Origin: Thiobacillus sp.
GTDB lineage: Bacteria; Pseudomonadota; Gammaproteobacteria; Burkholderiales; Thiobacillaceae
Direction of reading: 5' to 3'
DNA: 64,000 nucleotides
Assembly: GCF_030696885.1 (NCBI RefSeq)
Contig: NZ_JAUYRI010000003.1
Span: forward strand, 62,001-126,000
A model generated the notes under the pieces. That model saw only the letters and a program-made list of their open reading frames with translations, was not told the DNA's origin and did not search any database. The position numbers were made by a program, and so were the translations under genes. Position 1 is the stretch's first letter. Each line of letters begins with the position of its first letter. Shown here one piece after another: positions 176 to 14,776 of the stretch.

Positions 176-889
176 TCAGCCCAGCCAGATCAAGGACGCC
201 ATACGCCCGGTCACGCCATCGCGGCGATAGGAATAGAAGGCGTCCGCTTCATTGAAGGTGCAGCGTCCGCCGCCGTACACCGCCTCCACCCCGGTGTGGC
301 CGAGACGGATGCGCGCGAGGGCATAGATATCGGCCAGCCATTTGCCCGGCGCGTGCGGCACAAAGGCGGCGGCCGCCTCGGGATGCTGCGCGACGAAGGC
401 CGCGCGCACCTCGTCACCCACTTCGAATGCCTGCGGGCCGATGGCCGCGCCCATCCAGGCCATCACCTCGCCCGGTGGCACCTGCATTGCAGCGACCGTG
501 GCTTCCAGCACCCCGTCTGCCAGCCCGCGCCAGCCGGCATGCGCGGCCGCCACCACGCTGCCGGCCCGGTCGCAGAACAGCACCGGCAGGCAGTCGGCAG
601 TGAGCACCACGCAGACCTGCCCGGTTTCGCGGCTAAACGATGCATCGGCTTCGGGAGTGGGATCACGTCCGGCTTCGATCACGCGGGCGCTGTGAACCTG
701 GCGCAGCCAGGCCGGCTCGGCCGGCAACTGCCGGCGCAGCTGTGCGCGGTTGGCCGCTATATGGGCCGGCTCGTCGCCGACGTGATCGCCGAGGTTGAAA
801 CTGGCCCACGGCGCCTGACTGACGCCGCCTGTGCGCACCGTCATCAGGCCATGCACCCGTGCGGGCGCGGGCCAGTCCGGCAGGATCAC
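176..889 (-). CDS. pgeF: Peptidoglycan editing factor PgeF (YfiH, laccase-domain)
   Basis: A 237-residue member of the multicopper polyphenol oxidase/YfiH family, whose E. coli member prevents mis-incorporation of L-serine into peptidoglycan precursors. The family metal-site residues are present: His66 in QVHS, Cys100 in TADCLPVLF and His117 in HAGWRG; the C-terminal YSYRRDGVTGRMASLIWL is also typical. I place the start at GTG 889, one base after the rluD stop, because MILPDWPAPARV aligns with the usual N-terminus; an ATG at 940 inside rluD would add 17 residues without family support. It is cotranscribed with rluD, the same pairing as in E. coli. Confidence 0.92.
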   Translation of the reverse strand: MILPDWPAPARVHGLMTVRTGGVSQAPWASFNLGDHVGDEPAHIAANRAQLRRQLPAEPAWLRQVHSARVIEAGRDPTPEADASFSRETGQVCVVLTADCLPVLFCDRAGSVVAAAHAGWRGLADGVLEATVAAMQVPPGEVMAWMGAAIGPQAFEVGDEVRAAFVAQHPEAAAAFVPHAPGKWLADIYALARIRLGHTGVEAVYGGGRCTFNEADAFYSYRRDGVTGRMASLIWLG

Positions 890-890
890 C

Positions 891-1868
891 CTATTTGGCC
901 CAGATCGTGTTGTCGCGCAGGGCAGCAAGCAGCGAGGCAAAATCCGGCGGCAACGGGCATTCCCAGTGCATGGATTCCTGGGTCACCGGATGGATCAGGC
1001 CCAGTCGTTCGGCGTGCAATGCCTGGCGCGGGAAGGGAATCTTGTGATGGCTGCGTCGGCTGGCGCTGTAGACCGTCTCGCCCACCAGCGGATGGCCGAT
1101 GTGCTGCATGTGCACCCGGATCTGGTGGGTACGCCCGGTTTCCAGCTTGCAGCGCAGCAGCGTAAAGCCGGGGAAGCGCTCGACCACGTCGTAATGCGTG
1201 ATGGCTTCCTTGCCCATGCTGTGTACGGTGCGCTTGGTGCGGTTGTGCGGGTCGCGCGCCAGCGGCGCATTGACGGTGCCCGGCCGGTCGACCTCGCCAT
1301 ACACCAGGGCAAGATATTCGCGTTTGACCGTGCGCGCCTGCAACTGGCGCACCAGGTCGGTATGCGCCCGGATCGTCTTGGCGACGACCAGCAGGCCGGA
1401 GGTGTCCTTGTCCAGCCGGTGCACAATGCCGGCACGCGGCAGCTCGGCCACCTGCGGCACCCGGTGCAGCAGCGCGTTCAGCAGCGTGCCGTGGCGGTTG
1501 CCGCTGCCGGGATGCACCACCAGGCCCACCGGCTTGTTGATGACCAGCAGCATCGAATCCTCGAACACCACGTCGAGCGGGATCGCCTCCGGCGCATCCG
1601 GCGTGGCGTCCGGATCGGGCTCGACCTCGACCCGCACCGACTCGCCGCCGTTGACCTTCATCCGGGTGGTGCCCCAGGCGTCGTCCACCGCGATCTTGCG
1701 CGCGCGGATCCAGTTCTGGATGCGATTGCGCGAGAACTCGGGCAGCATGGTCGCCAGCGCCTGGTCCAGGCGCTGGCCGCCCTGGGCGTCCGGAATCACC
1801 AGCTCGCGGACGCCGGTTTCCGTATTTCCCTTATAATCGTCGGACAAATTTTCCGTGTCTGTTCCCAT
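891..1868 (-). CDS. rluD: 23S rRNA pseudouridine(1911/1915/1917) synthase RluD
   Basis: A 325-residue RluA-family pseudouridine synthase, close to the 326 residues of E. coli RluD. An S4 RNA-binding domain (QRLDQALATMLPEFSRNRIQNW) is followed by the catalytic domain with the diagnostic HRLDKDTSGL motif, where the aspartate is the nucleophile. The frame opens at 1955, but that would run over the bamD start. I take ATG 1868 (MGTDTENLSDD), which leaves a 34-bp divergent space to bamD. It modifies helix 69 of 23S rRNA. The divergent neighbour bamD and downstream pgeF reproduce a common proteobacterial arrangement and support the assignment. Confidence 0.93.
   Translation of the reverse strand: MGTDTENLSDDYKGNTETGVRELVIPDAQGGQRLDQALATMLPEFSRNRIQNWIRARKIAVDDAWGTTRMKVNGGESVRVEVEPDPDATPDAPEAIPLDVVFEDSMLLVINKPVGLVVHPGSGNRHGTLLNALLHRVPQVAELPRAGIVHRLDKDTSGLLVVAKTIRAHTDLVRQLQARTVKREYLALVYGEVDRPGTVNAPLARDPHNRTKRTVHSMGKEAITHYDVVERFPGFTLLRCKLETGRTHQIRVHMQHIGHPLVGETVYSASRRSHHKIPFPRQALHAERLGLIHPVTQESMHWECPLPPDFASLLAALRDNTIWAK
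1832..1837 (+). promoter_or_regulatory. Possible -10 element for bamD
   Basis: A perfect TATAAT lies 65 bp before the preferred bamD ATG, inside the 5' end of rluD. There is no recognisable -35 hexamer 16-18 bp upstream, so it would be a -10-dominated promoter, or chance. Its position favours a bamD start downstream of GTG 1855. Confidence 0.3.
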
Positions 1869-1902
1869 GCTCAAGCAATGCTTTTCCGGTTTTAATGCGT
1901 TC

Positions 1903-2712
1903 ATGCAGGCGCCTGGTCTCAAACGGGCGTGCGGAGGTGCCCTGCTCGTCGCCACGCTGGCCCTGGGCGGCTGCGGCCTGCTACCCGAGGTTCAGGATGA
2001 AACCGCGGGCTGGTCGGCGCAAAAACTCTACGCCGAAGCCAAGGATAACCTCAACGGCGGCAACTACGAGCGCGCGATCAAACTGTTCGAAACGCTGGAA
2101 TCGCGCTACCCCTTCGGGCGCTACGCCCAGCAGGCCCAACTGGAAGTCGCCTACGCCTATTACAAGGACAACGAGCCGATTTCCGCCATCGCCGCCTGCG
2201 ACCGCTTCATCAAGTTACACCCCAATCACCCTAACGTCGATTACGCCTACTATCTGAAGGGCCTGGCGAATTTTAATGACGACCTCGGCCTGCTCGGCAA
2301 CCTGGTTGACCAGGACCTGTCCGAACGCGATCCGCGCGCCGCGCGCGACGCCTTCCTGGCATTCAAGGAGCTGGTCACCCGCTTCCCCGACAGCAAATAC
2401 GCCGAGGATTCGACCGCCCGCATGAAATACCTGGTCAACGCGCTGGCCAGCCACGAAGTCCACGTCGCCAAGTATTACCTCAAGCGCGAAGCCTGGGTGG
2501 CCGCCGCCAACCGCGCCAAGGAAGTCCTGAAAACCTATCCCGAAGCCCCCGCGCTGGAAGAAGCGCTGGCAATCATGGTCGTGTCCTACGACAAGCTCAA
2601 GCTCAACGACCTGCGCGACGACACCCTGCGCGTCCTGACGCTCAACTTCCCCAACAGCAAGTACACCAAGGGCGTGAACATCGAGGGCAAGCCGTGGTAC
2701 CGGTTCTGGTAA
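1903..2712 (+). CDS. bamD: Outer membrane assembly lipoprotein BamD (ComL)
   Basis: A 269-residue TPR lipoprotein of the BAM complex, which inserts beta-barrel proteins into the outer membrane together with BamA (also in this window). The signal peptide MQAPGLKRACGG... ends in the lipobox LALGGC. The mature part shows the BamD hallmarks: ERAIKLFETLESRYPFGRY, PNVDYAYYLKG, DPRAARDAFLAFKELVTRFPDSKYA. The open frame extends back to GTG 1855 and ATG 1867, but ATG 1903 gives a standard 23-residue lipoprotein signal. No clear Shine-Dalgarno sequence precedes any of the three candidates. It is divergent from rluD, a conserved betaproteobacterial arrangement. Confidence 0.93.
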   Translation: MQAPGLKRACGGALLVATLALGGCGLLPEVQDETAGWSAQKLYAEAKDNLNGGNYERAIKLFETLESRYPFGRYAQQAQLEVAYAYYKDNEPISAIAACDRFIKLHPNHPNVDYAYYLKGLANFNDDLGLLGNLVDQDLSERDPRAARDAFLAFKELVTRFPDSKYAEDSTARMKYLVNALASHEVHVAKYYLKREAWVAAANRAKEVLKTYPEAPALEEALAIMVVSYDKLKLNDLRDDTLRVLTLNFPNSKYTKGVNIEGKPWYRFW

Positions 2713-2827
2713 GAGCCCCGCGATGCCGGCCATCGAAGCCGGCTGCGGGTCTTGCATGAAGCGGCACGGCTAAATCGCGTCGAACTCGGGCCAGCCCTCG
2801 CACGATAACGCAGGTAAGTCACCCACC

Positions 2828-3352
2828 ATGAAGCGCGCTCAACTCGCCCTCGTCATCGTCGCAAGCCTGATCCTCGGCGCCTGCACGACTGCCCACCCGC
2901 CGCTTCCGACCGTCCCGGCGGTCAACCTGGATCGCTATGTCGGCACCTGGTATGAGGTCGCCCACCTGCCCAACTGGTTCCAGAAAAAATGCGTCGCGGA
3001 CACCCGCGCGACCTATCGGCAGGAAGATGCGCAGATTGCGGTGCTGAACGAATGCCGCACCGCGGCCGGCACCTTCGATCAGGCGAAAGGCATTGCTCAC
3101 GCGGTGGAAGGCAGCCGCAACGCCAAGCTGCGGGTAAGCTTCTTCCGGCCGTTCTACGGCGATTACTGGATACTGGCGCTCGACCCGGACTACCGCTGGG
3201 TGCTGGTGGGCGAACCGGGGCGCGACTATGCATGGATTCTGGCGCGCACCCCGCAACTCGACGCGGCCACACTGGAGGCGCTGCTGGCGCAGGCGGCGTC
3301 ACTGGGCTTCGACCGCCAGGCTTTCCAAATGACACCGCACACGCAGCCCTGA
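2828..3352 (+). CDS. blc: Lipocalin family outer membrane lipoprotein (Blc-like)
   Basis: A 174-residue lipocalin with signal peptide MKRAQLALVIVASLILGAC, the cysteine being the lipidation site. The first structurally conserved lipocalin region is explicit: LDRYVGTWYEVAHLPNWFQ. Further family blocks are VSFFRPFYGDYWILALD and WVLVGEPGRDYAWILART. Blc-type proteins bind lysophospholipids and fatty acids at the inner face of the outer membrane and are often envelope-stress inducible. The gene follows bamD after 115 bp on the same strand. The family is clear; ligand and regulation are not visible. Confidence 0.85.
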   Translation: MKRAQLALVIVASLILGACTTAHPPLPTVPAVNLDRYVGTWYEVAHLPNWFQKKCVADTRATYRQEDAQIAVLNECRTAAGTFDQAKGIAHAVEGSRNAKLRVSFFRPFYGDYWILALDPDYRWVLVGEPGRDYAWILARTPQLDAATLEALLAQAASLGFDRQAFQMTPHTQP

Positions 3353-3389
3353 AAATCGTGGTTCGCGGTATTCCGCAGGATGCACAACC

Positions 3390-4913
3390 ATGCCGGAAAC
3401 GATAAGTGAGTCGGCCAAACTAATCCAAAGCCTGCACAACCCGGCCTGCTTCAATCACGCGGCCGGCCCGGTCCGGGTCATCGAAACCCATATCTCCTGG
3501 GTTCTCCTCACCGGCGAATTCGCCTACAAGATCAAGAAGCCGCTCAACCTCGGCTTCCTCGATTTCAGCAGCCTCGACAAGCGCCTGCACGCGTGCTGCG
3601 ACGAAGTGCAACTCAACCGGCGGCTCGCGCCGGCCATCTATCTCGACGTCGTCCCCATCACCGGCACCCCGGCCGCCCCGCGCATCAACGGCAGCGGCGC
3701 GACCTTCGAGTACGCCGTGAAGATGAGGCAGTTCCCGGTGGACGCCACGCTCGACCGACTCGACGCAGCGGGCGGCCTGACCGCGCACCATGTCGAAGCC
3801 ATCGCCGCCACCCTTGCCCGCTTCCATTTCGAAGGCTGCGCACGCGCCGCGTCAGACAGCCTCTGGGGCACGCCGGAAAAAATCCGGCAGCCAGTGGTGC
3901 AGAACTTCGAGCAGATCGCGCCGCGCCTTGACGACCCGGCCGACCAACACAGCCTCGACGCCCTGCAGCGCTGGAGCGAAACCGAACATGCCCGGCTCGC
4001 CCCGCTCATGGCTGCGCGCAAGCGCGACGGTTTCGTGCGCGAATGCCACGGCGACCTCCACCTCGGCAACCTCGCCTGGGTCGACGAGCAGCTGCTGGTG
4101 TTCGACTGCATCGAATTCAATCCCGAGTTGCGCTGGATCGACATCCAGTCCGAAGTCGCCTTCTGTTACATGGACCTGCTGCAGCGCGGCCATGCCGACT
4201 GGGCCTGGCTGTTCCTCAACCGCTGGCTGGAAGCCACCGGCGATTACGCGGGGCTCGTGCTCTTGCGCTACTACGCCGTCTACCGCGCATTGGTGCGCGC
4301 CAAGGTCGCCGCCATTCGCACTGCGCAGACCTCAGGCCAAGAGCGCGCTGCCGCGCTCGCCGAAGTGCGCACGCTGCTGAACCTGGCAAGCACCCTGACC
4401 CACGCCCAGCCCATGCGCCTCGACATCACCCACGGTCTGTCCGGCTCCGGAAAGACCACCGTCACGCAAAAACGGATGCAGACGCCAGGCGCCATCCGCC
4501 TGCGTTCAGACGTCGAGCGCAAGCGCCTCGCCGGCCTCGATGCCCTGGCGAAAAGTGGCTCCGGCGTCGGACGGGATTTATACGCAGCCGATGCCACGCG
4601 CCGCACCTATGCCCATCTGGCCAGGCTGGCGGGAGAAATCCTCGACACCGGCTGGCCGGTCATCGTCGACGCCACCTTCACCGCACGCTGGCAACGCGAC
4701 CTGCTGCGCGAAGTGGCGCACACCCGCAACGTCGAATTCCGCATCCTCGATTTCCCCGTCCCCGTCGCCACCCTGCGCGAACGCATCGTCCAGCGATCAC
4801 GCGCTGGCAACGACGTCTCGGAGGCCGACCTCGCCGTGCTGCAGCATCAACTCGAGTCCGAAGAGCCGCTCGACACCGACGAGCAGGCAGACATTGTCGG
4901 AATCGACACGTAA
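3390..4913 (+). CDS. APH-like kinase / P-loop ATPase fusion protein
   Basis: A 507-residue two-domain protein. The N-terminal half (about 1-330) is an aminoglycoside phosphotransferase/choline kinase-like fold with the catalytic block CHGDLHLGN and the metal-binding stretch FDCIEFNPELRWID. The C-terminal half (about 345-507) is a small P-loop kinase-like domain with Walker A GLSGSGKTT and a later VIVDATFT strand, as in gluconate/shikimate-kinase-like AAA_33 proteins. Proteins of this exact fusion are widespread in proteobacteria and usually annotated as bifunctional phosphotransferase/ATP-binding proteins without a known substrate. It should not be read as a resistance gene. It is the last high-GC gene before the accessory island. 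Confidence 0.8.
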   Translation: MPETISESAKLIQSLHNPACFNHAAGPVRVIETHISWVLLTGEFAYKIKKPLNLGFLDFSSLDKRLHACCDEVQLNRRLAPAIYLDVVPITGTPAAPRINGSGATFEYAVKMRQFPVDATLDRLDAAGGLTAHHVEAIAATLARFHFEGCARAASDSLWGTPEKIRQPVVQNFEQIAPRLDDPADQHSLDALQRWSETEHARLAPLMAARKRDGFVRECHGDLHLGNLAWVDEQLLVFDCIEFNPELRWIDIQSEVAFCYMDLLQRGHADWAWLFLNRWLEATGDYAGLVLLRYYAVYRALVRAKVAAIRTAQTSGQERAAALAEVRTLLNLASTLTHAQPMRLDITHGLSGSGKTTVTQKRMQTPGAIRLRSDVERKRLAGLDALAKSGSGVGRDLYAADATRRTYAHLARLAGEILDTGWPVIVDATFTARWQRDLLREVAHTRNVEFRILDFPVPVATLRERIVQRSRAGNDVSEADLAVLQHQLESEEPLDTDEQADIVGIDT

Positions 4914-5684
4914 TTGTGCAAGTGTGTGCCAGAGCCAGTTTAAATAACGGCGTGGCGTATTGATTTTCAGGGCTGGGGGGCGTGCGCAGGCTTAATGAAC
5001 TCGATAACCCCGCGCAAAATCAAGTCCGCAAGTTATTGTTGAATTCGATTTCGTTCAGGTCCGAGCCAAGTGCTCGTCGACCGGTTGAATCCGCAGCCAA
5101 GAACAGAAGTTTCTGCTGGTAATGGCGAGCGTCCATTCATCGGCCAAAGGCGACAACTACCTTTCGATTGACCGCGTCCGCTGTAGTCGCAAGACCGGTC
5201 GTTGGCTCGCCTCTCGCTCCGGAACGACCGCTTCCCTCAGTTCGGACGGCAGAACCCGACCCTAAGCGGTCGGTCATGCATCGTTCGTCCTACGTCCTCT
5301 CAACCATCGAAAGGAGTCATACACTGCGTACTCCTTAGGTGAAACTTTCTGCCATGCCGAGTCCATTAACGGTGCTTCGTTGCTGACTACCGACGGAGGG
5401 CCGACACCTCGATTGAAGCCATAACACCTCCGCAACTACGACTAAAGTTGTATATCTATTTTAAAACCTCTGTCCTAAGCTGATTTCTTCAACTACAAGC
5501 ATGATTTATCTGCTCATGGCCGCCTCTCACTCGAGCACGCCCAAGGAGGGCTCGACGATAGGCGCAATCGATCGGCGTCACGAGTTCGCGCCAGCGTCGC
5601 GTCCGAATTGACTGGCGTAGCGGGAAGAACAAGCGGATTGACGCTGCTGCGGCGACTAGCCAACCGAGGTGAGGAAAAATCGAA
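4914..5684. other. Gene-free left flank of the accessory island
   Basis: About 770 bp without a convincing gene. GC content drops and stops are frequent in all frames. Around 5190-5280 there are short inverted matches (CGGTCGTT at 5196-5203 against AACGACCG at 5223-5230, then another GCGGTCGGTC), which look like a decayed intergenic repeat. An AT-rich patch at about 5441-5470 could hold a promoter, but no hexamer pair is convincing. No transposase remnant or tRNA attachment site is recognisable. Confidence 0.5.
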
Positions 5685-6560
5685 ATGATATTTCAAATGC
5701 TTAAACGAATACTTCTCGTCGCTTTATTGTTCCACTCTGCTGAGTCATTCTCGGGTCCCGGCCCTATTTATGGAACGGTGTATGGCTATGACGGCAAGCC
5801 GTTACCTGAGGCCAGGGTTCGTGCCTTCGATGAAGATGAGCTCCAATCGGGCGGAATCGGCCCCAGAGTTAACCGAGATGAAAAAATGGGCGAAGCCATC
5901 ACGGACAAGGAAGGCAAATATCGGATTACCTACACGAGTTACGATGAAAAACATTGGGATGGCCCAAAGACACAGTTTCATACCAATTGGCGGCCGGATG
6001 TTTACCTCGTTGTTGCGATACAGCAGGACTATAACAATCAGAAGCACTGGTCTAAACGATATGTTTCTAAAGTACACATGAATCACCCCATGAGAGATCC
6101 ACTCAAAATCGACATACGTCTCCCTCCCGGAAAGTGCGGGGCGGGTGAGCCGCTCAACTGCTCGATTCCTTGGCTCGCCAAAGTAATCGAACCCCATCAT
6201 TGGATCACGGGGGGGACTGGCAAAATTCCTGGTCTCTTTAATAACGCCTGCAAACGCCACGACTATTGCTATCGGCATGGCTTCCTGACTTACGGTAAGT
6301 CGAAGGCGAAATGCGATAAGGATTTTATGGACGACATGTCGGATGCCTGTACTAGCAACAATCGGGCGGCACATGTCCTCACCGCGGGTCTATCTACGTC
6401 CGCCTGTCTAGCGACTGCTGGTGAGATGTTTGGAGCAGTAAGCTTGCTTGGGGACAAGGACTTTCGTAAAAAGAATGGGTCCATTTGTGAATACGAAGGG
6501 CCTCAGCAACCAATAAGCGGCGGGGCTGGATCAAGAGATAAACAAGATCGTCTTCGGTGA
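5685..6560 (+). CDS. Exported phospholipase A2-like protein with N-terminal regulatory-like domain
   Basis: A 291-residue protein. The start MIFQMLKRILLVALLFHS looks like a Sec signal peptide. Residues about 28-150 begin GTVYGYDGKPLPEARVRAFD and resemble a transthyretin-like/carboxypeptidase-regulatory beta domain. Residues about 150-270 resemble the prokaryotic phospholipase A2 fold: NACKRHDYCYRHG, with the His192-Asp193 pair expected at the active site, followed by KCDKDFMDDM. Eight cysteines in this half suggest disulfides and an extracytoplasmic location. A purine-rich ribosome site (GAGGTGAGG) precedes ATG 5685. It is the first gene of a tight four-gene operon and its stop overlaps the frame of the next gene. 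Enzymatic activity is inferred from the motif only. Confidence 0.7.
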   Translation: MIFQMLKRILLVALLFHSAESFSGPGPIYGTVYGYDGKPLPEARVRAFDEDELQSGGIGPRVNRDEKMGEAITDKEGKYRITYTSYDEKHWDGPKTQFHTNWRPDVYLVVAIQQDYNNQKHWSKRYVSKVHMNHPMRDPLKIDIRLPPGKCGAGEPLNCSIPWLAKVIEPHHWITGGTGKIPGLFNNACKRHDYCYRHGFLTYGKSKAKCDKDFMDDMSDACTSNNRAAHVLTAGLSTSACLATAGEMFGAVSLLGDKDFRKKNGSICEYEGPQQPISGGAGSRDKQDRLR

Positions 6561-6595
6561 GCCTTGTTTCAACGGGAATTTTGACTGGAGCGACG

Positions 6596-7381
6596 ATGAC
6601 CGTTCATATGTGTGGCGTATTACACAGAGTGATTGCTGGGGCCGCGTTTGCGTTGTCGACCACTCTTTTGTCGGGTTGTGGAACGGTGCAACCGTCCAGT
6701 GATGTCACCCAAGATGTAAGACTCGAGGAGGTGTGGAAAAGCCTTGAAAAGAAAGGGTATACACGCAATGCTGATCTGTCGTCCAAGATACGTCCTGCTG
6801 TAATAATTCAGACCACAAGTCGTGGGGCCGACAATCGCCCCGTGCCAGAAACGACACCCATTGTCTTTCTCGGGGGAGCAGACTGCTTCCCCGATGCGAA
6901 GACAGACGAAAGCGCTGTTCCTGACATTGCGGCCGGGGGCACCAACAGTAAAGTGCTAGTTCTGGAAGCTCAACTGATAAAGAACGTCCTGCCGAGCTTG
7001 AAAGTTGATGCCTCCATGGTTGACACCTTCTCGCTGGTTCTTACGGACATGAAGACTGTGCTGATACCGCGCGCCGAACTGATGAACATGGCAGACACTT
7101 GTAACAAAATTCTCGACCAGACGTTAAAGCGTGGCGATCAACTGGCATGGTTTAAGATCGTTAATGAGGTGGTCGCCGCGGAGGGCATCACGCTTGATGT
7201 GACCTGGACGGCTAAAGGCGGTGCCAATATTGCCTATCAGAAGAAGTTGGCGGAGATCGTTGCCGGCCCCACCGCAACATTTGCCCCTAGCTTAATTAGC
7301 GAGCGCCGCGCCAGCCTCAAGACCGACAAGCGCATCGTTCTCGGATATAAGACACGCACCGTCGAGGAGATCAAGAACTAA
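6596..7381 (+). CDS. Putative lipoprotein of unknown function in the caspase operon
   Basis: A 261-residue protein of no family I recognise. MTVHMCGVLHRVIAGAAF... ends in lipobox LLSGC with Cys28 as the predicted lipid site. I prefer ATG 6596 because GGAG at 6587-6590 sits five bases upstream; the frame also opens at GTG 6557, overlapping the phospholipase stop. The mature part is mixed alpha/beta in character with a few cysteines and no obvious catalytic motif. Position between a phospholipase-like gene and a DUF4384 gene suggests a membrane-anchored partner, adaptor or immunity factor, but this is only context. Base composition matches the island, not the flanking core genes. Confidence 0.75.
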   Translation: MTVHMCGVLHRVIAGAAFALSTTLLSGCGTVQPSSDVTQDVRLEEVWKSLEKKGYTRNADLSSKIRPAVIIQTTSRGADNRPVPETTPIVFLGGADCFPDAKTDESAVPDIAAGGTNSKVLVLEAQLIKNVLPSLKVDASMVDTFSLVLTDMKTVLIPRAELMNMADTCNKILDQTLKRGDQLAWFKIVNEVVAAEGITLDVTWTAKGGANIAYQKKLAEIVAGPTATFAPSLISERRASLKTDKRIVLGYKTRTVEEIKN

Positions 7382-7431
7382 TGATCTGGAGAAGAACCAT
7401 CTAGGATCCACGATCTTGACGGGAGAGAGTC

Positions 7432-8166
7432 ATGGATGGAATCAGTTCGAGATTGCTACGGGGAGGTTGGGGGCCAGTTCGATGGATGAGTTTTTTATCA
7501 TTAGCTGCATTCGTGGCTAGCAGTCTGTCCAGCGTTCAAGCCGAGTCGTTTGGCGCGCGCGACATCTGGCATAAGGATGACGCAGCAGGGCAATCCGAGC
7601 GAACAGCGGCTAAATTCATCCTTCAACTGATCGAAGGTCAGCAGCAGCGCCGGGTAAGCATGGATCACACGTTTCGCACTGGCGATGAATTCCAGTTTGT
7701 GCTCACGCCCAATCGAGAAATCTACCTGTACGTTGTCAACATCAATCCCAAAGGCGTGGCCAGCTGTGTTTGGCCATCGGAAACGCAAAACACGAATAAC
7801 CGGCTGGCCAAGGGTGCCGAAACGCGGATACCCACATCGGGAACCTTCCAATTTAGTGGCGCGACCGGTGAAGATTGGTTGTTGGTGATTCTGTCCCCAT
7901 TTAAACAACGTCCAAACCTGGATCGATTACAGCGCGAATTGCCGGATTATCGGAAAGCGCCGGGGCATGTGGTCGAGTATCCCGAAATCCACATCCCGCC
8001 CCGCAAGTTCGGTGCTAGAGGTAATCCGGGCTTGACGGATGATCCGATATCAACTGATCCTGCCACCTATGGGGCACAGAGGAGCTCTGGCGAACGAGTG
8101 CTGGTCTATCCGTATCTATTGCAGCATCAGCCAAGGAATGGTGACAAGAAGCCACCTCCTTCATGA
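7432..8166 (+). CDS. Exported DUF4384 domain protein
   Basis: A 244-residue protein. A long N-terminal stretch ends in a hydrophobic signal (WMSFLSLAAFVASSLSSVQA), followed by about residues 65-150 that match the DUF4384 pattern: TGDEFQFVLTPNREIYLYV, VNINPKGVASCVWPS and DWLLVILS. DUF4384 domains often accompany or are fused to caspase-like and kinase domains, where they are thought to be ligand- or protein-binding beta modules. The C-terminus is proline-rich. GGGAGAG stands seven bases before ATG 7432. Its TGA overlaps the ATG of the caspase gene (ATGA at 8163-8166), so the two are translationally coupled and probably act together. Confidence 0.78.
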   Translation: MDGISSRLLRGGWGPVRWMSFLSLAAFVASSLSSVQAESFGARDIWHKDDAAGQSERTAAKFILQLIEGQQQRRVSMDHTFRTGDEFQFVLTPNREIYLYVVNINPKGVASCVWPSETQNTNNRLAKGAETRIPTSGTFQFSGATGEDWLLVILSPFKQRPNLDRLQRELPDYRKAPGHVVEYPEIHIPPRKFGARGNPGLTDDPISTDPATYGAQRSSGERVLVYPYLLQHQPRNGDKKPPPS

Positions 8167-11100
8167 AGTTCCTTCGATATCTCATGCTTGCAGTGCTCAC
8201 GTTAACGCTGCCATCACACGCCTTTGCTGTGGATAAGCCTGACGTGTTTGTAACACTAGAGGAAATAGGAAAAACCGTAAATGCCCTTGCCTTCTCCTTG
8301 GACGGCCGCCTTATAGCATCTGGAGGCGGGCCCTACATTACGCTGTGGAATGCGGCGAGCGGACGTGAGCTTCGAACGCTGACAGATCAAGGAGGAGAGA
8401 TCCTTAGCGTCGCGTTTTCGCCGGATGGCCGCATGCTCGCGTCGGGGAGTAACGAGGATGGTTACTACTTAATCAAACTGTGGGACGCGGCGAGCGGGCG
8501 AGAGCTTCGGACGCTGCGAGGCCATACTGCAAGTGTTTTGACTGTTGCCTTTTCCCCGGATGGCCGCATGCTGGCGTCGGGGGACAGAAACAATACGGTC
8601 AAACTGTGGGACGCGGCGAGCGGGCGAGAGCTTCGAACTCTGAAAGGCCGCAATGTAGGCCTTTCGAGAGTTGTCTTTTCCCCGGATGGCCGCATGCTGG
8701 TGTTGGGTGACACGGTCTTGGATGTCCCGAATGGGCGTGAGCTTCGGACGCTGAAAGTACCAGGGAGATCGGTAGCATCCCCGGATGGTCGCATGATGGC
8801 GTCGCTGAGCGCAGACAACACAATCAAGCTGTTGGACATGGCAAGCGGGCGTGAGCTTCGAACGCTGACAGGTCATAGAGGGGAGATCCTTAGCGTTGAC
8901 TTTTCCCCGGATGGCCGCGTGCTGGCGTCTGGGGATAGAGACAACACGATCAAACTGTGGGACGCGGCGAGCGGGCGAGAGCTTCGGACGCTGCGAGGCC
9001 ATACTGCAAGTGTATTTACGGTTATCTTTTCCCCGGATGGCCGCGTGCTGGCGTCGGGGGACAGAAACAATACGGTCAAACTGTGGGACGCGGCGAGCGG
9101 GCGAGAGCTTCGAACTCTGACAGGCCACGCTGCAGATCTTCCGACATTTGTCTTTTCCCCGGATGGCCGCATGCTGGCGTCGGGGAGTGGAGGCACGATC
9201 AAACTGTGGGATGCGGCGAGCGGGCGAGGGCTTAGGGCTTTAAAAGGTCATAAATGGGGGATCCTTAGCCTTGCCTTTTCCCCCGATGGCCGCATGCTGG
9301 CATCATCTGCGCGTTGGGACCAGACAATCAAACTGTGGGACACGGCGAGCGGGCGCGAGCTTCGAACGCTGAAAGGTTATCGAGCGCGTGAGGTTCATAG
9401 CCTCGCCTTTTCCCCGGATGGCCGCATGCTGGCATCGGGGAGTAGGGACGGCAGGATCAAACTGTGGGACCCCTCGAGCGGGCGTAAGCTTCGAACGCTA
9501 AAAGGTCATAAAACGCGTGATGAGGTTCATAGCGTCGCCTTTTCCCCGGATGGCCGCATGCTGGCGTCGGGGAGTAGGGACGGCACGATCAAACTGTGGG
9601 ACCCGTCGAGTGGGCGTAAGCTTCGAACGATTCATTTCAGCGGATTCATGAGTACTGTTGCCTTTTCCCCGGATGGACGCATGCTGGCCTCCGGAAACTG
9701 GGGCGGCACGATCAAACTGTGGGACACAGCGAGCGGGCAAGAGCTTCGGACGCTGGACTGGCAGCATGGAGGGGTCGACAGTGTCGCATTTTCCCCGAAT
9801 GGCCGCGTACTGGTGTCGGGGGGGGCGGGGGATAGCCCGATCAAGCTGTGGGATACTGAAAGTGGGAAATTGCTTCGCACGTTTAAAGTCGGCTCTTATG
9901 TGCGGCCGTTCGGACTCGAAGCCTATGGTCCTGTAACCAGTGTCGCATTTTCCAATGAGGGTATGCTGGCGTCGGGCGGCAATGCCGTGCGGCTGTGGGA
10001 TGTCAATAGCGGCGCCGAGCGCGTCAAGCTAATCAGCCTGAGTGATGGCGGTTGGCTTGCTATTACCCCCGAGGGCTACTACGACGCCTCACCCGGTGCC
10101 GATAAGTATGTCAATGTCCGCATTGGCAACCAAGTATACGGTGTTGATCAATACCGTAATCGCTTCTATCGCCCCCTTGTCGTGCAGGCAGCATTGGCGG
10201 GCAAGCCGATCACCGATCTGGCCAACATCGCCAATGTTAAACCGGCTCCCTCGGTCGCCATCGTTGACACTCCCTTAATGGTGGATAAGGAAGAGGTGAA
10301 AGTACGTGTTCATGTGACCGACCAGGGCGGCGGCATTGGCGATGTTCGGTTTTATCTCAATGGCACTCTGGTTGGCCAGGTACAGAGCCGCGATATTCTG
10401 TTGAGAAGTAACACCGATACCAGCAAAGGGCACACCCTAACATATAACCTTAAGCTCGTAGCCGGCAAAAACGCGCTCCAAGTAATCGCGTTCAATGCCG
10501 AGAACTCCATGCAAAGTATCGAAGCCGTGCATACAATCAAGGCACGGATCGCCGATTTTTTGCCGACTCTGCATGCATTGATTATCGGAATCGACGAATA
10601 CGACAATCCGAAATACAAACTCCAGTATGCAGTTGCTGATGCGGTTCTGATAGAGAAAACGCTGAATGACAACGCTGCAAAGTTTTACAAGAATCGAGTT
10701 CGCATTCAACGCCTCACGACTCGCCCCAAGACCACCAAAGATGTAATTCTCGCGGCGCTTAAGGGCTACCGAATACAGGTCAAGCCAAACGATGTATTCC
10801 TCTTCTTCATCGCTTCCCACGGAACGATTGATCATGGGGAGTTTTACCTCCTTACATCGAATGTTGACTCCGTGTCGAGCCACATACTGCGCGCTTCTGC
10901 CTTGAGCCAGAAAGACATTACGAGCGCGATCGCCAACATCCCAGCAACCAAGAAAATTGTGCTCATAGATTCCTGCAACTCCGGCAAGCTCGGTGACGCA
11001 ATTCAGGTGGCACTCCTGACACGTGGGCTCAGCGAAGAAACGGCACTCAAACTGTTGGGGGAAGCGGTTGGCTCGGTGCTGCTGTCGGCTGCCACCTCGC

Positions 11101-11327
11101 AACAGCAAGCGATTGAAGGCTACAAGAGCCATGGCCTTTTCACTTACGTGGTGACCGAAGGGATGAAAGGCGCGGCCGATGAAAACCGAGACGGCTTTGT
11201 GTGGACCAATGAGCTCGTTGGTTACGTTGATTCACAGGTCCGATCTATATCGGAGAGCCACTTCGGACAGAAACAATCCCCTACAACGGGATTGACTGGC
11301 ATCTTTCCACTGACGAAAACGCACTAA
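8163..11327 (+). CDS. Exported 14-blade WD40 / caspase-like (C14) protein
   Basis: A 1054-residue protein with a Sec-type signal peptide (MKFLRYLMLAVLTLTLPSHAFA). Residues about 39-628 hold fourteen WD40 blades with the recurring FSPDGRMLASG and IKLWD cores (blade 4 degenerate), enough for two seven-bladed propellers. A linker with an Ig-like stretch (GDVRFYLNGTLVG) follows. Residues about 803-1050 form a peptidase C14 caspase-like domain: HALIIGIDEYD, FFIASHGT with His886, and VLIDSCNSGK with Cys938, the expected catalytic dyad. Cytoplasmic relatives use propellers as sensors and the caspase as effector; an exported version is less usual. Coding DNA of the blades is highly repetitive, showing recent duplication. 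It is the last gene of the operon. Confidence 0.88.
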   Translation: MKFLRYLMLAVLTLTLPSHAFAVDKPDVFVTLEEIGKTVNALAFSLDGRLIASGGGPYITLWNAASGRELRTLTDQGGEILSVAFSPDGRMLASGSNEDGYYLIKLWDAASGRELRTLRGHTASVLTVAFSPDGRMLASGDRNNTVKLWDAASGRELRTLKGRNVGLSRVVFSPDGRMLVLGDTVLDVPNGRELRTLKVPGRSVASPDGRMMASLSADNTIKLLDMASGRELRTLTGHRGEILSVDFSPDGRVLASGDRDNTIKLWDAASGRELRTLRGHTASVFTVIFSPDGRVLASGDRNNTVKLWDAASGRELRTLTGHAADLPTFVFSPDGRMLASGSGGTIKLWDAASGRGLRALKGHKWGILSLAFSPDGRMLASSARWDQTIKLWDTASGRELRTLKGYRAREVHSLAFSPDGRMLASGSRDGRIKLWDPSSGRKLRTLKGHKTRDEVHSVAFSPDGRMLASGSRDGTIKLWDPSSGRKLRTIHFSGFMSTVAFSPDGRMLASGNWGGTIKLWDTASGQELRTLDWQHGGVDSVAFSPNGRVLVSGGAGDSPIKLWDTESGKLLRTFKVGSYVRPFGLEAYGPVTSVAFSNEGMLASGGNAVRLWDVNSGAERVKLISLSDGGWLAITPEGYYDASPGADKYVNVRIGNQVYGVDQYRNRFYRPLVVQAALAGKPITDLANIANVKPAPSVAIVDTPLMVDKEEVKVRVHVTDQGGGIGDVRFYLNGTLVGQVQSRDILLRSNTDTSKGHTLTYNLKLVAGKNALQVIAFNAENSMQSIEAVHTIKARIADFLPTLHALIIGIDEYDNPKYKLQYAVADAVLIEKTLNDNAAKFYKNRVRIQRLTTRPKTTKDVILAALKGYRIQVKPNDVFLFFIASHGTIDHGEFYLLTSNVDSVSSHILRASALSQKDITSAIANIPATKKIVLIDSCNSGKLGDAIQVALLTRGLSEETALKLLGEAVGSVLLSAATSQQQAIEGYKSHGLFTYVVTEGMKGAADENRDGFVWTNELVGYVDSQVRSISESHFGQKQSPTTGLTGIFPLTKTH
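8403..9880 (+). repeat. Tandem WD40-coding DNA repeats with a recent two-blade duplication
   Basis: Units of about 115-135 bp share cores such as TTTTCCCCGGATGGCCGCAT and ATCAAACTGTGGGA. Within them 8472-8643 (blades 2-3) and 8949-9120 (blades 6-7) match over 172 bp at a fixed offset of 477 bp with six mismatches counted by eye, far closer than other blade pairs. This is the trace of an in-frame segmental duplication or gene conversion of 159 codons. Confidence 0.85.
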
Positions 11328-11515
11328 CACAGCGATGTGGGCGGCAGCAGACATGACTGGCATCCGACCGCTCAAGAAACCGTGAGCGGACCGCTTACCT
11401 TGCTAGGTATAGGGCCGCTTTGGCCGAGCACCGGACGGTGGCGACAACCTCGACCGTCTCTTCCTGGCTGATTTAATACCGCTGCAAGTCCCTCACAAGC
11501 AAACGCTGCCCGGTC
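11328..11515. other. Right flank of the accessory island
   Basis: Non-coding. A perfect 7-bp inverted repeat CCGCTCA (11368-11374) / TGAGCGG (11383-11389) with an 8-base loop follows the caspase gene but lacks a T-run, so it is a poor intrinsic terminator. The surrounding GACCGC/GGTCGG-rich text resembles that on the left flank, as if both sides carry decayed copies of the same intergenic repeat family. Confidence 0.45.
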
Positions 11516-13463
<1,948 letters not shown>

Positions 13464-13464
<1 letters not shown>

Positions 13465-13901
13465 CAACTGCGGGAAGAGCAAGTGTTGATGGAGTACGCG
13501 TGACTCAGAACCCAGCCAGAGTAGTCGCCAGTACCGTAACGCACACCAACATGAAGCAATGGGATCTCCAGATCATCCTCAAACTTAGCCTTGCTCACAA
13601 ATTCACAGAACACAGATTTCAAATCATCGCCCAACTCAGAAACAAATGGAACTTCTGCCACCCCGTCTTCGGGAACCCTGATCAATTGGAACTGGACCTG
13701 AGCAATCTGCTCTTTAAAATCGATATATCCCAATTTCAAATCTGGGCGCTTTCCTATTACTGCCTCAGCATACTGTTCGCCGAACTCCGTTTGTCTTTGG
13801 CTCAACCACCAAGCCATAAGACCAGCAAGAACCAGCAATAAAAGCCGAATCAGCGCAATACCTCGGCCCGTACGTCCAGCAAGTGCGCCCGCATCATTCA
13901 T
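13464..13901 (-). CDS. Small membrane-anchored protein of unknown function
   Basis: A 145-residue product with one N-terminal transmembrane helix ([19 protein letters not shown]) and a mostly acidic, beta-rich remainder. I recognise no family. It starts four bases after the sucD stop with GAG immediately upstream, and its TGA shares a base with the nadE ATG, so it is wedged into the operon with coupled junctions at both ends. Its third positions are much less GC-rich than those of sucD or nadE, so it looks recently acquired or weakly constrained. The coupling argues that it is translated; function is unknown. Confidence 0.6.
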
Positions 13902-13904
13902 CTC

Positions 13905-14776
13905 TTATCGCGCGCCGAGCGCCAACTGCACCGCTTCGCCCAGCCCGGCCGGGCTTTGCGCGACGACGACGCCGGCGGCTTCGAGCGCGCGGATCTTGGC
14001 GTCCGCCGTGCCGCTGCCGCCGGCTATGATCGCGCCGGCATGGCCCATGCGCTTGCCCTTGGGTGCGGTGCGGCCGGCGATATAGGCGGCGACAGGTTTC
14101 TTCATGTTGGAGCGGATGAACTCGGCCGCCTCTTCCTCGCGGCTGCCGCCGATTTCGCCGACGAGGATCACCGCTTCGGTCTGCGGGTCGGCCTCGAACA
14201 GTTCCAGGCAGTCGATGAAGTCCAGCCCCTTGATCGGGTCGCCGCCGATGCCGACGCAGGTCGACTGGCCCAGCCCCAGCTGCGTGGTCTGATGCACCGC
14301 CTCGTAGGTCAGCGTGCCGGAGCGCGAGACGATGCCGACCTTGCCTTTCTGGTGGATGACGCCGGGCATGATGCCGATCTTGCATTCGCCCGAGGTGATG
14401 ATGCCGGGGCAGTTGGGGCCGATCAGTTTGGCGCCGTTGGCACGCAAGGCGGCCTTGACGTTGAGCATGTCCAATACCGGGATGCCTTCAGTGATGCAGA
14501 CGATGACCTCGATGCCGGCGTCGGCCGCTTCCAGGATCGAGTCGGCGGCGAACGCGGCCGGCACGTAGATCATCGTCGCCTGCGCGCCGGTCTGGCGCAC
14601 TGCGTCGCGAACGGTGTTGAATACGGGCAGGTTTAGATGCGTCTGCCCACCCTTGCCGGGGGTGACGCCGCCGACCATCTGCGTGCCATAGGCAATCGCC
14701 TGCTCGGAATGGAACGTGCCCTGCTTGCCGGTGAAGCCCTGGCAAATGACTTTAGTGTTTTTGTCGACGAGGATGC

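What the first reader, a model, noticed from the sequence alone, without database searches (positions are those of the whole stretch)
5685..11327. Four-gene exported cassette: phospholipase A2-like protein, lipoprotein, DUF4384, WD40-caspase
The genes form one operon (stop/start overlaps at 6557-6560 and 8163-8166, a 50-bp gap at 7382-7431). All products appear to have export signals. Caspase-like proteases and phospholipases occur separately in bacterial defence and toxin systems, but here both appear outside the cytoplasm. A plausible model is that propellers sense a ligand, the caspase cuts and releases a membrane-degrading enzyme, and the lipoprotein or DUF4384 protein restrains or recruits it. 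I do not know a described system with this set.
Basis: partly seen in the sequence, partly recalled or inferred. Interest (0 to 1): 0.85.

Follow-up and report, generated by a model that had tools for sequence, protein, structure and literature searches.

The report
Exported caspase and phospholipase gene island
A bacterium carries a foreign-looking four-gene island whose products all look exported: a WD40-caspase protease with a DUF4384 partner often found beside caspases, next to a phospholipase A2-like enzyme and a lipoprotein without known relatives; a working link between protease and phospholipase is a hypothesis.

Summary
In detail: four co-directional genes at the stated coordinates, all with export-signal-like starts (judged by eye). 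Gene 1 is a group XIV-type phospholipase A2 domain (catalytic residues present) behind a carboxypeptidase-regulatory-like region. Gene 2 is an orphan lipoprotein. Gene 3 carries DUF4384. Gene 4 has 13-14 WD40 units, an Ig-like domain and a caspase domain with an intact His/Cys dyad. The block has low GC and lies in a segment (2714-11515) missing between the same flanks in one same-genus and one same-family genome.

The parts behave differently. DUF4384 and caspase domains recur together: 22 of 33 DUF4384 domains lay within 5 kb of a caspase domain in 200 genomes of the order (window included). The phospholipase does not follow them: 0 of 46 caspase-bearing stretches held one, and 1 of 14 phospholipase loci held a caspase. 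The lipoprotein had no homologue in any search made.

So a recurrent caspase-DUF4384 pair is joined here, so far uniquely, to a secreted phospholipase and a lipoprotein. Caspase control of the phospholipase is possible but untested; an enzyme-immunity pair travelling beside an independent protease pair fits about as well.

The parts
5685..6560 (+). Gene 1, 291 aa: signal-peptide-like start, CarboxypepD_reg-like region (28-83), PLA2 domain (about 150-270) with H192, D193, D211
6557..7381 (+). Gene 2, orphan predicted lipoprotein, 274 aa (261 aa if the start is ATG 6596)
   Evidence: lipobox LSGC by eye
7432..8166 (+). Gene 3, 244 aa, exported-looking DUF4384 protein (domain 80-156)
8163..11327 (+). 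Gene 4, 1054 aa: signal-peptide-like start, 13-14 WD40 units, linker, Big_7 Ig-like domain, caspase (C14) domain with H886 and C938
8472..9755 (+). Tandem array of WD40-coding repeats, period 126 bp, 10.4 copies by Tandem Repeats Finder
2714..11515 (.). Segment absent between the same flanks in G167 (same genus) and G231 (same family); the low-GC part is about 4914-11330

Best explanation
A horizontally acquired envelope module. Its core is an exported WD40-caspase with a DUF4384 partner, a pairing that recurs in this order. Joined to it are a secreted, probably disulfide-bonded phospholipase A2 and an orphan lipoprotein that probably anchors, restrains or neutralises it. Most likely working: the propeller or the DUF4384 protein senses something in the envelope, the caspase becomes active, and one of its targets is the PLA2 (its N-terminal region acting as restraint) or the lipoprotein, so that phospholipid hydrolysis damages the cell's own or a neighbour's envelope. 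Shown by sequence: gene content, catalytic residues, low GC and the missing segment in relatives, DUF4384-caspase recurrence. Inferred: location, enzyme activities, any cleavage of PLA2 or lipoprotein, a conflict role.
For: Four co-directional genes with overlaps or a 50-bp gap. Low GC, 51-60% against mostly 62-68% in the flanks, and absence between the same flanks in G167 and G231. PLA2 residues H192, D193, D211 and six cysteines invariant in 11 aligned sequences. Caspase motifs SHG and DSC present. DUF4384 within 5 kb of a C14 domain in 22 of 33 cases.
Against: PLA2 and caspase are not associated elsewhere: 0 of 46 and 1 of 14. Gene 2 has no homologue in 300 order and 350 class genomes. No cleavage site, interaction or activity was tested. 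PADLOC has no match for genes 1-3; gene 4 matches a caspase model (1.8e-11) and, through its WD40 part, another model.
Confidence: 0.33

Rival explanations
1. Two independent cargoes on one island: a secreted PLA2 with its lipoprotein immunity partner (genes 1-2) beside a DUF4384-caspase envelope pair (genes 3-4). The lipoprotein protects the producer; the caspase has nothing to do with the phospholipase.
For: PLA2 relatives occur without caspases (13 of 14 loci) and caspase loci without PLA2 (46 of 46); gene 2 directly follows gene 1 and has no homologue, as a fast-changing immunity protein might. Periplasmic lipoproteins are known immunity partners of phospholipase effectors (recalled, not from a call).
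Against: All four genes run in one direction within a single low-GC block. None of the 14 PLA2 loci has a gene-2 relative, so the pair itself does not recur.
Confidence: 0.32
2. Envelope lipid upkeep or stress response: the PLA2 removes misplaced outer-membrane phospholipid and the caspase-DUF4384 pair tunes it; no conflict role.
For: Export-like starts of all four products (by eye). In a genome of the same family two caspase genes and a DUF4384 gene sit beside a FecR-domain gene.
Against: Genes 1 and 2 are found in the window's genome alone among the family genomes searched, and the segment is absent in G167 and G231, unlike a housekeeping function.
Confidence: 0.13
3. Genes 1-2 make a secreted enzyme aimed at other cells (bacteria, protists or fungi); the protease pair only matures or ignores it.
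For: Secreted group XIV-type PLA2 domain.
Against: No secretion-system gene was looked for or identified; the closest PLA2 relatives, L068 and L069, look like cell-bound lipoproteins (lipobox by eye).
Confidence: 0.08

Closest known systems
Caspase with alpha/beta-hydrolase pairs and the EACC1-caspase two-gene system (PMC7159879, passages read)
   Same: A caspase-superfamily protease encoded with a possible lipid- or ester-cleaving enzyme; the EACC1 system is described as membrane-associated.
   Different: Here all products look exported, the enzyme is a PLA2 and not an alpha/beta hydrolase, and the EACC1-type caspase model is matched below its cut-off (72.8 against 140 bits). EACC1 itself was not searched for.
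Group XIV secreted phospholipase A2 (Streptomyces violaceoruber, 1faz/1lwb; Tuber borchii, 4aup)
   Same: Profile match 1e-6 and 0.0025; His and Asp residues in place.
   Different: Extra N-terminal CarboxypepD_reg-like region; a caspase operon.
Prokaryotic WD40 proteins with repetitive blades (PMC5587647, passages read)
   Same: Tandem blades with 59% mean pairwise identity over 13 units, inside that paper's moderate class (0.4-0.7) by my own measure.
   Different: Export-like start and a caspase domain in the same protein; the passages report caspase genes as neighbours of WD40 genes in cyanobacteria.
Caspase homologues with DUF4384 (PMC6426788, passages read)
   Same: DUF4384 linked with caspase-like domains.
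   Different: There in one protein together with a trypsin-like domain; here in a separate exported-looking protein.

Membership tests
Group XIV (prokaryotic) phospholipase A2 | Sequence match to the family | tested here: met
   Narrowly: trimmed domain 29.6 bits against the PF09056 cut-off of 29.4, whole protein 27.5, below it; profile of 10 sequences hits 1faz at 1e-6
Group XIV (prokaryotic) phospholipase A2 | Catalytic His/Asp dyad and Asp next to the His | tested here: met
   H192, D193 and D211 invariant in 11 aligned sequences; roles taken from passages of PMC11525133
Group XIV (prokaryotic) phospholipase A2 | PLA2 fold | tested here: inconclusive
   Model mean pLDDT 52.8, helical core 69-91 by blocks over residues 181-250; Foldseek of the whole model found no PLA2 among the 50 of 186 matches shown, none at E<=0.001
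Group XIV (prokaryotic) phospholipase A2 | Phospholipid hydrolysis | not testable with these tools
   needs an assay
Caspase / orthocaspase (C14) | C14 domain above cut-off | tested here: met
   PF00656 63 bits against 21.4
Caspase / orthocaspase (C14) | His-Cys dyad | tested here: met
   SHG at 885-887 and DSC at 936-938, at the places of the HG and DxC motifs of other C14 domains
Caspase / orthocaspase (C14) | Protease activity after basic residues | not testable with these tools
   needs an assay
DUF4384-caspase pairing | DUF4384 and C14 domains in one frame or within 5 kb | tested here: met
   Window domains 2.7 kb apart; 22 of 33 in 200 genomes of the order, window included
EACC1-associated caspase system | EACC1-type caspase model NF047832 above cut-off | tested here: not met
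   72.8 bits against 140
EACC1-associated caspase system | Neighbouring EACC1 gene | not tested
   no EACC1 model was run; NCBIfam named none of genes 1-3
Described anti-phage defence systems (PADLOC-DB 2.0.0) | Match to system proteins | tested here: inconclusive
   genes 1-3 none; gene 4 a caspase model 1.8e-11 and HEAT-ARM_XIII 4.8e-24 over WD40 units
Gasdermin | Sequence match of gene 2 | tested here: not met
   no Pfam family up to E=10; no gasdermin among 5 PDB matches of its C-terminal part up to E=10

The most novel reading that the evidence does not exclude
A caspase-controlled membrane-degrading module sited in the bacterial envelope: an exported propeller-caspase acts as an extracytoplasmic sensor and releases a secreted phospholipase A2, an envelope counterpart of cytoplasmic caspase-effector cell-death systems.
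Probability: 0.18. Interest if true: 0.78.

Novelty: new variant of a known kind. Interest (0 to 1): 0.42.

Why it matters
Bacterial caspase systems are mostly discussed as acting inside the cell (my general knowledge; passages of PMC7159879 describe a membrane-associated one). A caspase-DUF4384 pairing that recurs across an order, in several loci with exported-looking proteins, is little described: a full-text search for DUF4384 found 5 papers, 3 of which also mention caspases. If one member controls a secreted phospholipase, regulated membrane destruction would exist outside the bacterial cytoplasm. Even if not, DUF4384 gains a testable assignment as partner of caspases.

Tried and rejected
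PLA2 scan of genome contigs with the single protein found nothing; with alignment A1 it found 11 loci. Viral contigs gave nothing for PLA2 or gene 2. Phages gave one chance-level hit (E=0.5). The order-level match in G273 (L058) covers only the N-terminal region and has no PLA2 motif, so it was not counted as a PLA2 relative.

Sinorhizobium L007 looked like an independent PLA2-caspase association. I set it aside as probably another pair: the caspase is 3.5 kb away, follows an ORF that looks like an alpha/beta hydrolase by eye (no Pfam match at E<=0.01), and no caspase was found near the PLA2 of its relatives L008, L072, L074 and L076. It still counts as the 1 of 14.

Gene 2 as a gasdermin-like protein came to mind from its size and caspase neighbour; sequence gave no support and the protein could not be modelled (pLDDT 34).

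My export heuristic tests many start codons and flags 9 of 42 window ORFs even with one start each; I use none of its counts. Greedy ORF calling lost the PLA2 ORF of L069, L074 and L075, so the co-occurrence counts come from an all-frame search. Of 47 caspase-centred stretches there, L066 had no caspase domain and was dropped, leaving 46; several overlap or come from one genome (G016, G115, G129, G139, G083, G088, G187, G020), and at least one is short (L051, 4 kb). L058 and the window's own L060 were left out before that count. PLA2 alignments used 10 of the 11 loci (A2, without L074) and 9 of 11 (A3, without L074 and L075).

G042 is not among the 22 of 33 because PF00656 did not list it, though searches show a caspase beside its DUF4384. 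The 5-kb limit was chosen after seeing the two lists; 5 of the 22 are on opposite strands. The 0.15% chance figure is a crude average over 200 genomes and would be a few times higher for genomes that hold both families.

The WD40 units show pN/pS 0.57 over 13 units: no overall sign of diversifying selection.

Full report
What is there. Gene 2 has an alternative ATG at 6596 that fits its lipobox and an upstream GGAG, so the first overlap may not be real.

Gene 1. Behind a signal-peptide-like start lies a region resembling CarboxypepD_reg (28-83, E 0.0013, below cut-off). It is shared with a protein of another genome of the order that lacks the PLA2 part and weakly matches a transthyretin-like family. 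The C-terminal part is a phospholipase A2 domain: whole-protein hits to PF06951 and PF09056 below their cut-offs, the trimmed domain just over the PF09056 cut-off (29.6 against 29.4 bits), 1faz by single sequence at 0.0013, and a profile of 10 sequences at 1e-6 to the Streptomyces PLA2 and 0.0025 to the Tuber PLA2. H192, D193, D211 and six cysteines (159, 189, 195, 210, 222, 241) are invariant in 11 aligned sequences; the protein has eight cysteines. The AlphaFold model has mean pLDDT 52.8 with a moderately confident helical core; Foldseek of the whole model gave no match at E<=0.001 and no PLA2 among the 50 shown, so the fold is not confirmed.

Gene 2. A predicted lipoprotein without homologues: only itself among 300 genomes of the order and among 350 of the class, which include a few of the order again; none on plasmids (for its C-terminal part up to E=10) or in viral contigs; no Pfam, NCBIfam or PADLOC model. 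Its single-sequence model is worthless (pLDDT 34).

Genes 3 and 4. Gene 3 is an exported-looking DUF4384 protein (4.8e-14). Gene 4 has 13-14 WD40 units with a 126-bp tandem array (59% mean pairwise identity of 13 units), a linker with ITPEGYYDASPG, a Big_7 Ig-like domain (7.6e-6) and a caspase domain (PF00656 4.3e-17) with SHG and DSC motifs. By a loose pattern an HG motif was found in 36 of 36 and a D-x-C motif in 28 of 36 caspase domains examined, some loci listed twice.

An acquired block. GC is 51-60% across the genes and mostly 62-68% on both sides; one flanking stretch, 13001-14500, is 59.6%. In G167 (same genus) and G231 (same family), DNA matching window 181-2713 (179-2713) and 11520-13465 (11516-13464) lies 301 and 71 bp apart. 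So 2714-11515 is an insertion here, or a loss in both. The segment also carries a 507-aa gene (3390-4913) that is present in all 9 family genomes searched, own included, lies on other contigs in G167 and G231, and whose G167 neighbours gave no match beside it in the window's genome. The place was thus rearranged as well as invaded. Misassembly is unlikely, because family-typical genes end about 770 bp to the left and 190 bp to the right of the four genes, but it is not excluded.

Which parts belong together. In 200 genomes of the order, PF14326 gave 33 matches in 29 genomes and PF00656 gave 104 matches in 54. 22 of the 33 DUF4384 domains lie within 5 kb of a caspase domain, 17 on the same strand; roughly 0.15% would be expected by chance. 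Eight of the 22 share strand and open-frame length with their caspase, hence are probably in one protein. The window's own pair is one of the 22. L062 and L063 show separate caspase and DUF4384 proteins side by side; L105, from the same family, has two exported-looking caspase genes followed by a DUF4384 gene and a FecR-domain gene.

The PLA2 does not follow this pairing. A single-sequence search found gene 1 in 2 of 300 genomes of the order, one being the window's own and the other only the N-terminal region. A profile-guided scan of genome contigs gave 11 loci; with three plasmid loci that makes 14. One of them (L007) has a caspase in the stretch held. L068, L073 and L078 are short or one-sided, so a neighbour could be missed. 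Conversely 0 of 46 caspase-bearing relative stretches hold a PLA2 or gene-2 relative. The nearest PLA2 relatives, L068 and L069 from gammaproteobacterial MAGs, are proteins of 220 and 212 aa with lipobox-like starts.

How it probably works. The DUF4384-caspase pair is best read as an envelope sensor and protease. The PLA2, with conserved cysteines and a signal peptide, should act outside the cytoplasm on phospholipid. The lipoprotein between them is placed to anchor or neutralise the PLA2 or to be a caspase substrate. Operon layout and the shared low-GC block make a link reasonable; the lack of recurrence leaves it unproven. I put the coupled reading (0.33) level with an enzyme-immunity pair beside an independent protease pair (0.32).

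What is in print. The closest text seen (passages of PMC7159879) describes caspases encoded with alpha/beta hydrolases and a membrane-associated EACC1-caspase system. Passages of PMC6426788 mention DUF4384 in caspase-like proteins; passages of PMC5587647 mention caspase genes near WD40 genes in cyanobacteria. Group XIV PLA2 features are from passages of PMC11525133. No paper was read whole.

Noticed in passing
L104:7885-11777 (G000:C26, own genome, outside the window): A second caspase-domain gene without an obvious export signal, followed by an alpha/beta-hydrolase-like gene (Pfam hits all below cut-off) and a gene that looks like a subtilisin-type protease by eye.
   Followed up: partly
window 5111-5271: A stretch of about 130-160 bp in the spacer before gene 1 is 81-82% alike to one other place in the same genome and one in the same-genus genome G167: a dispersed intergenic repeat.
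   Followed up: partly
window 3390-4913: A 507-aa gene present in all 9 family genomes searched sits in the segment missing at this place in G167 and G231, and lies elsewhere in them.
   Followed up: partly
L007:7800-14637 and L008:7800-11754: Sinorhizobium plasmids carry a PLA2-domain protein of 710 aa followed by a phage-lysozyme-domain protein; L007 also has a caspase gene downstream, L008 S8 peptidase genes.
   Followed up: partly
L054 (G115:C18:1-16000): Four caspase-domain genes in a row, one with WD40 repeats and one fused to DUF4384.
   Followed up: no
L049:7297-10771 (G023:C5): A caspase-domain gene followed by a gene whose start looks like an LCAT/PGAP1-type lipase by eye; not tested.
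   Followed up: no
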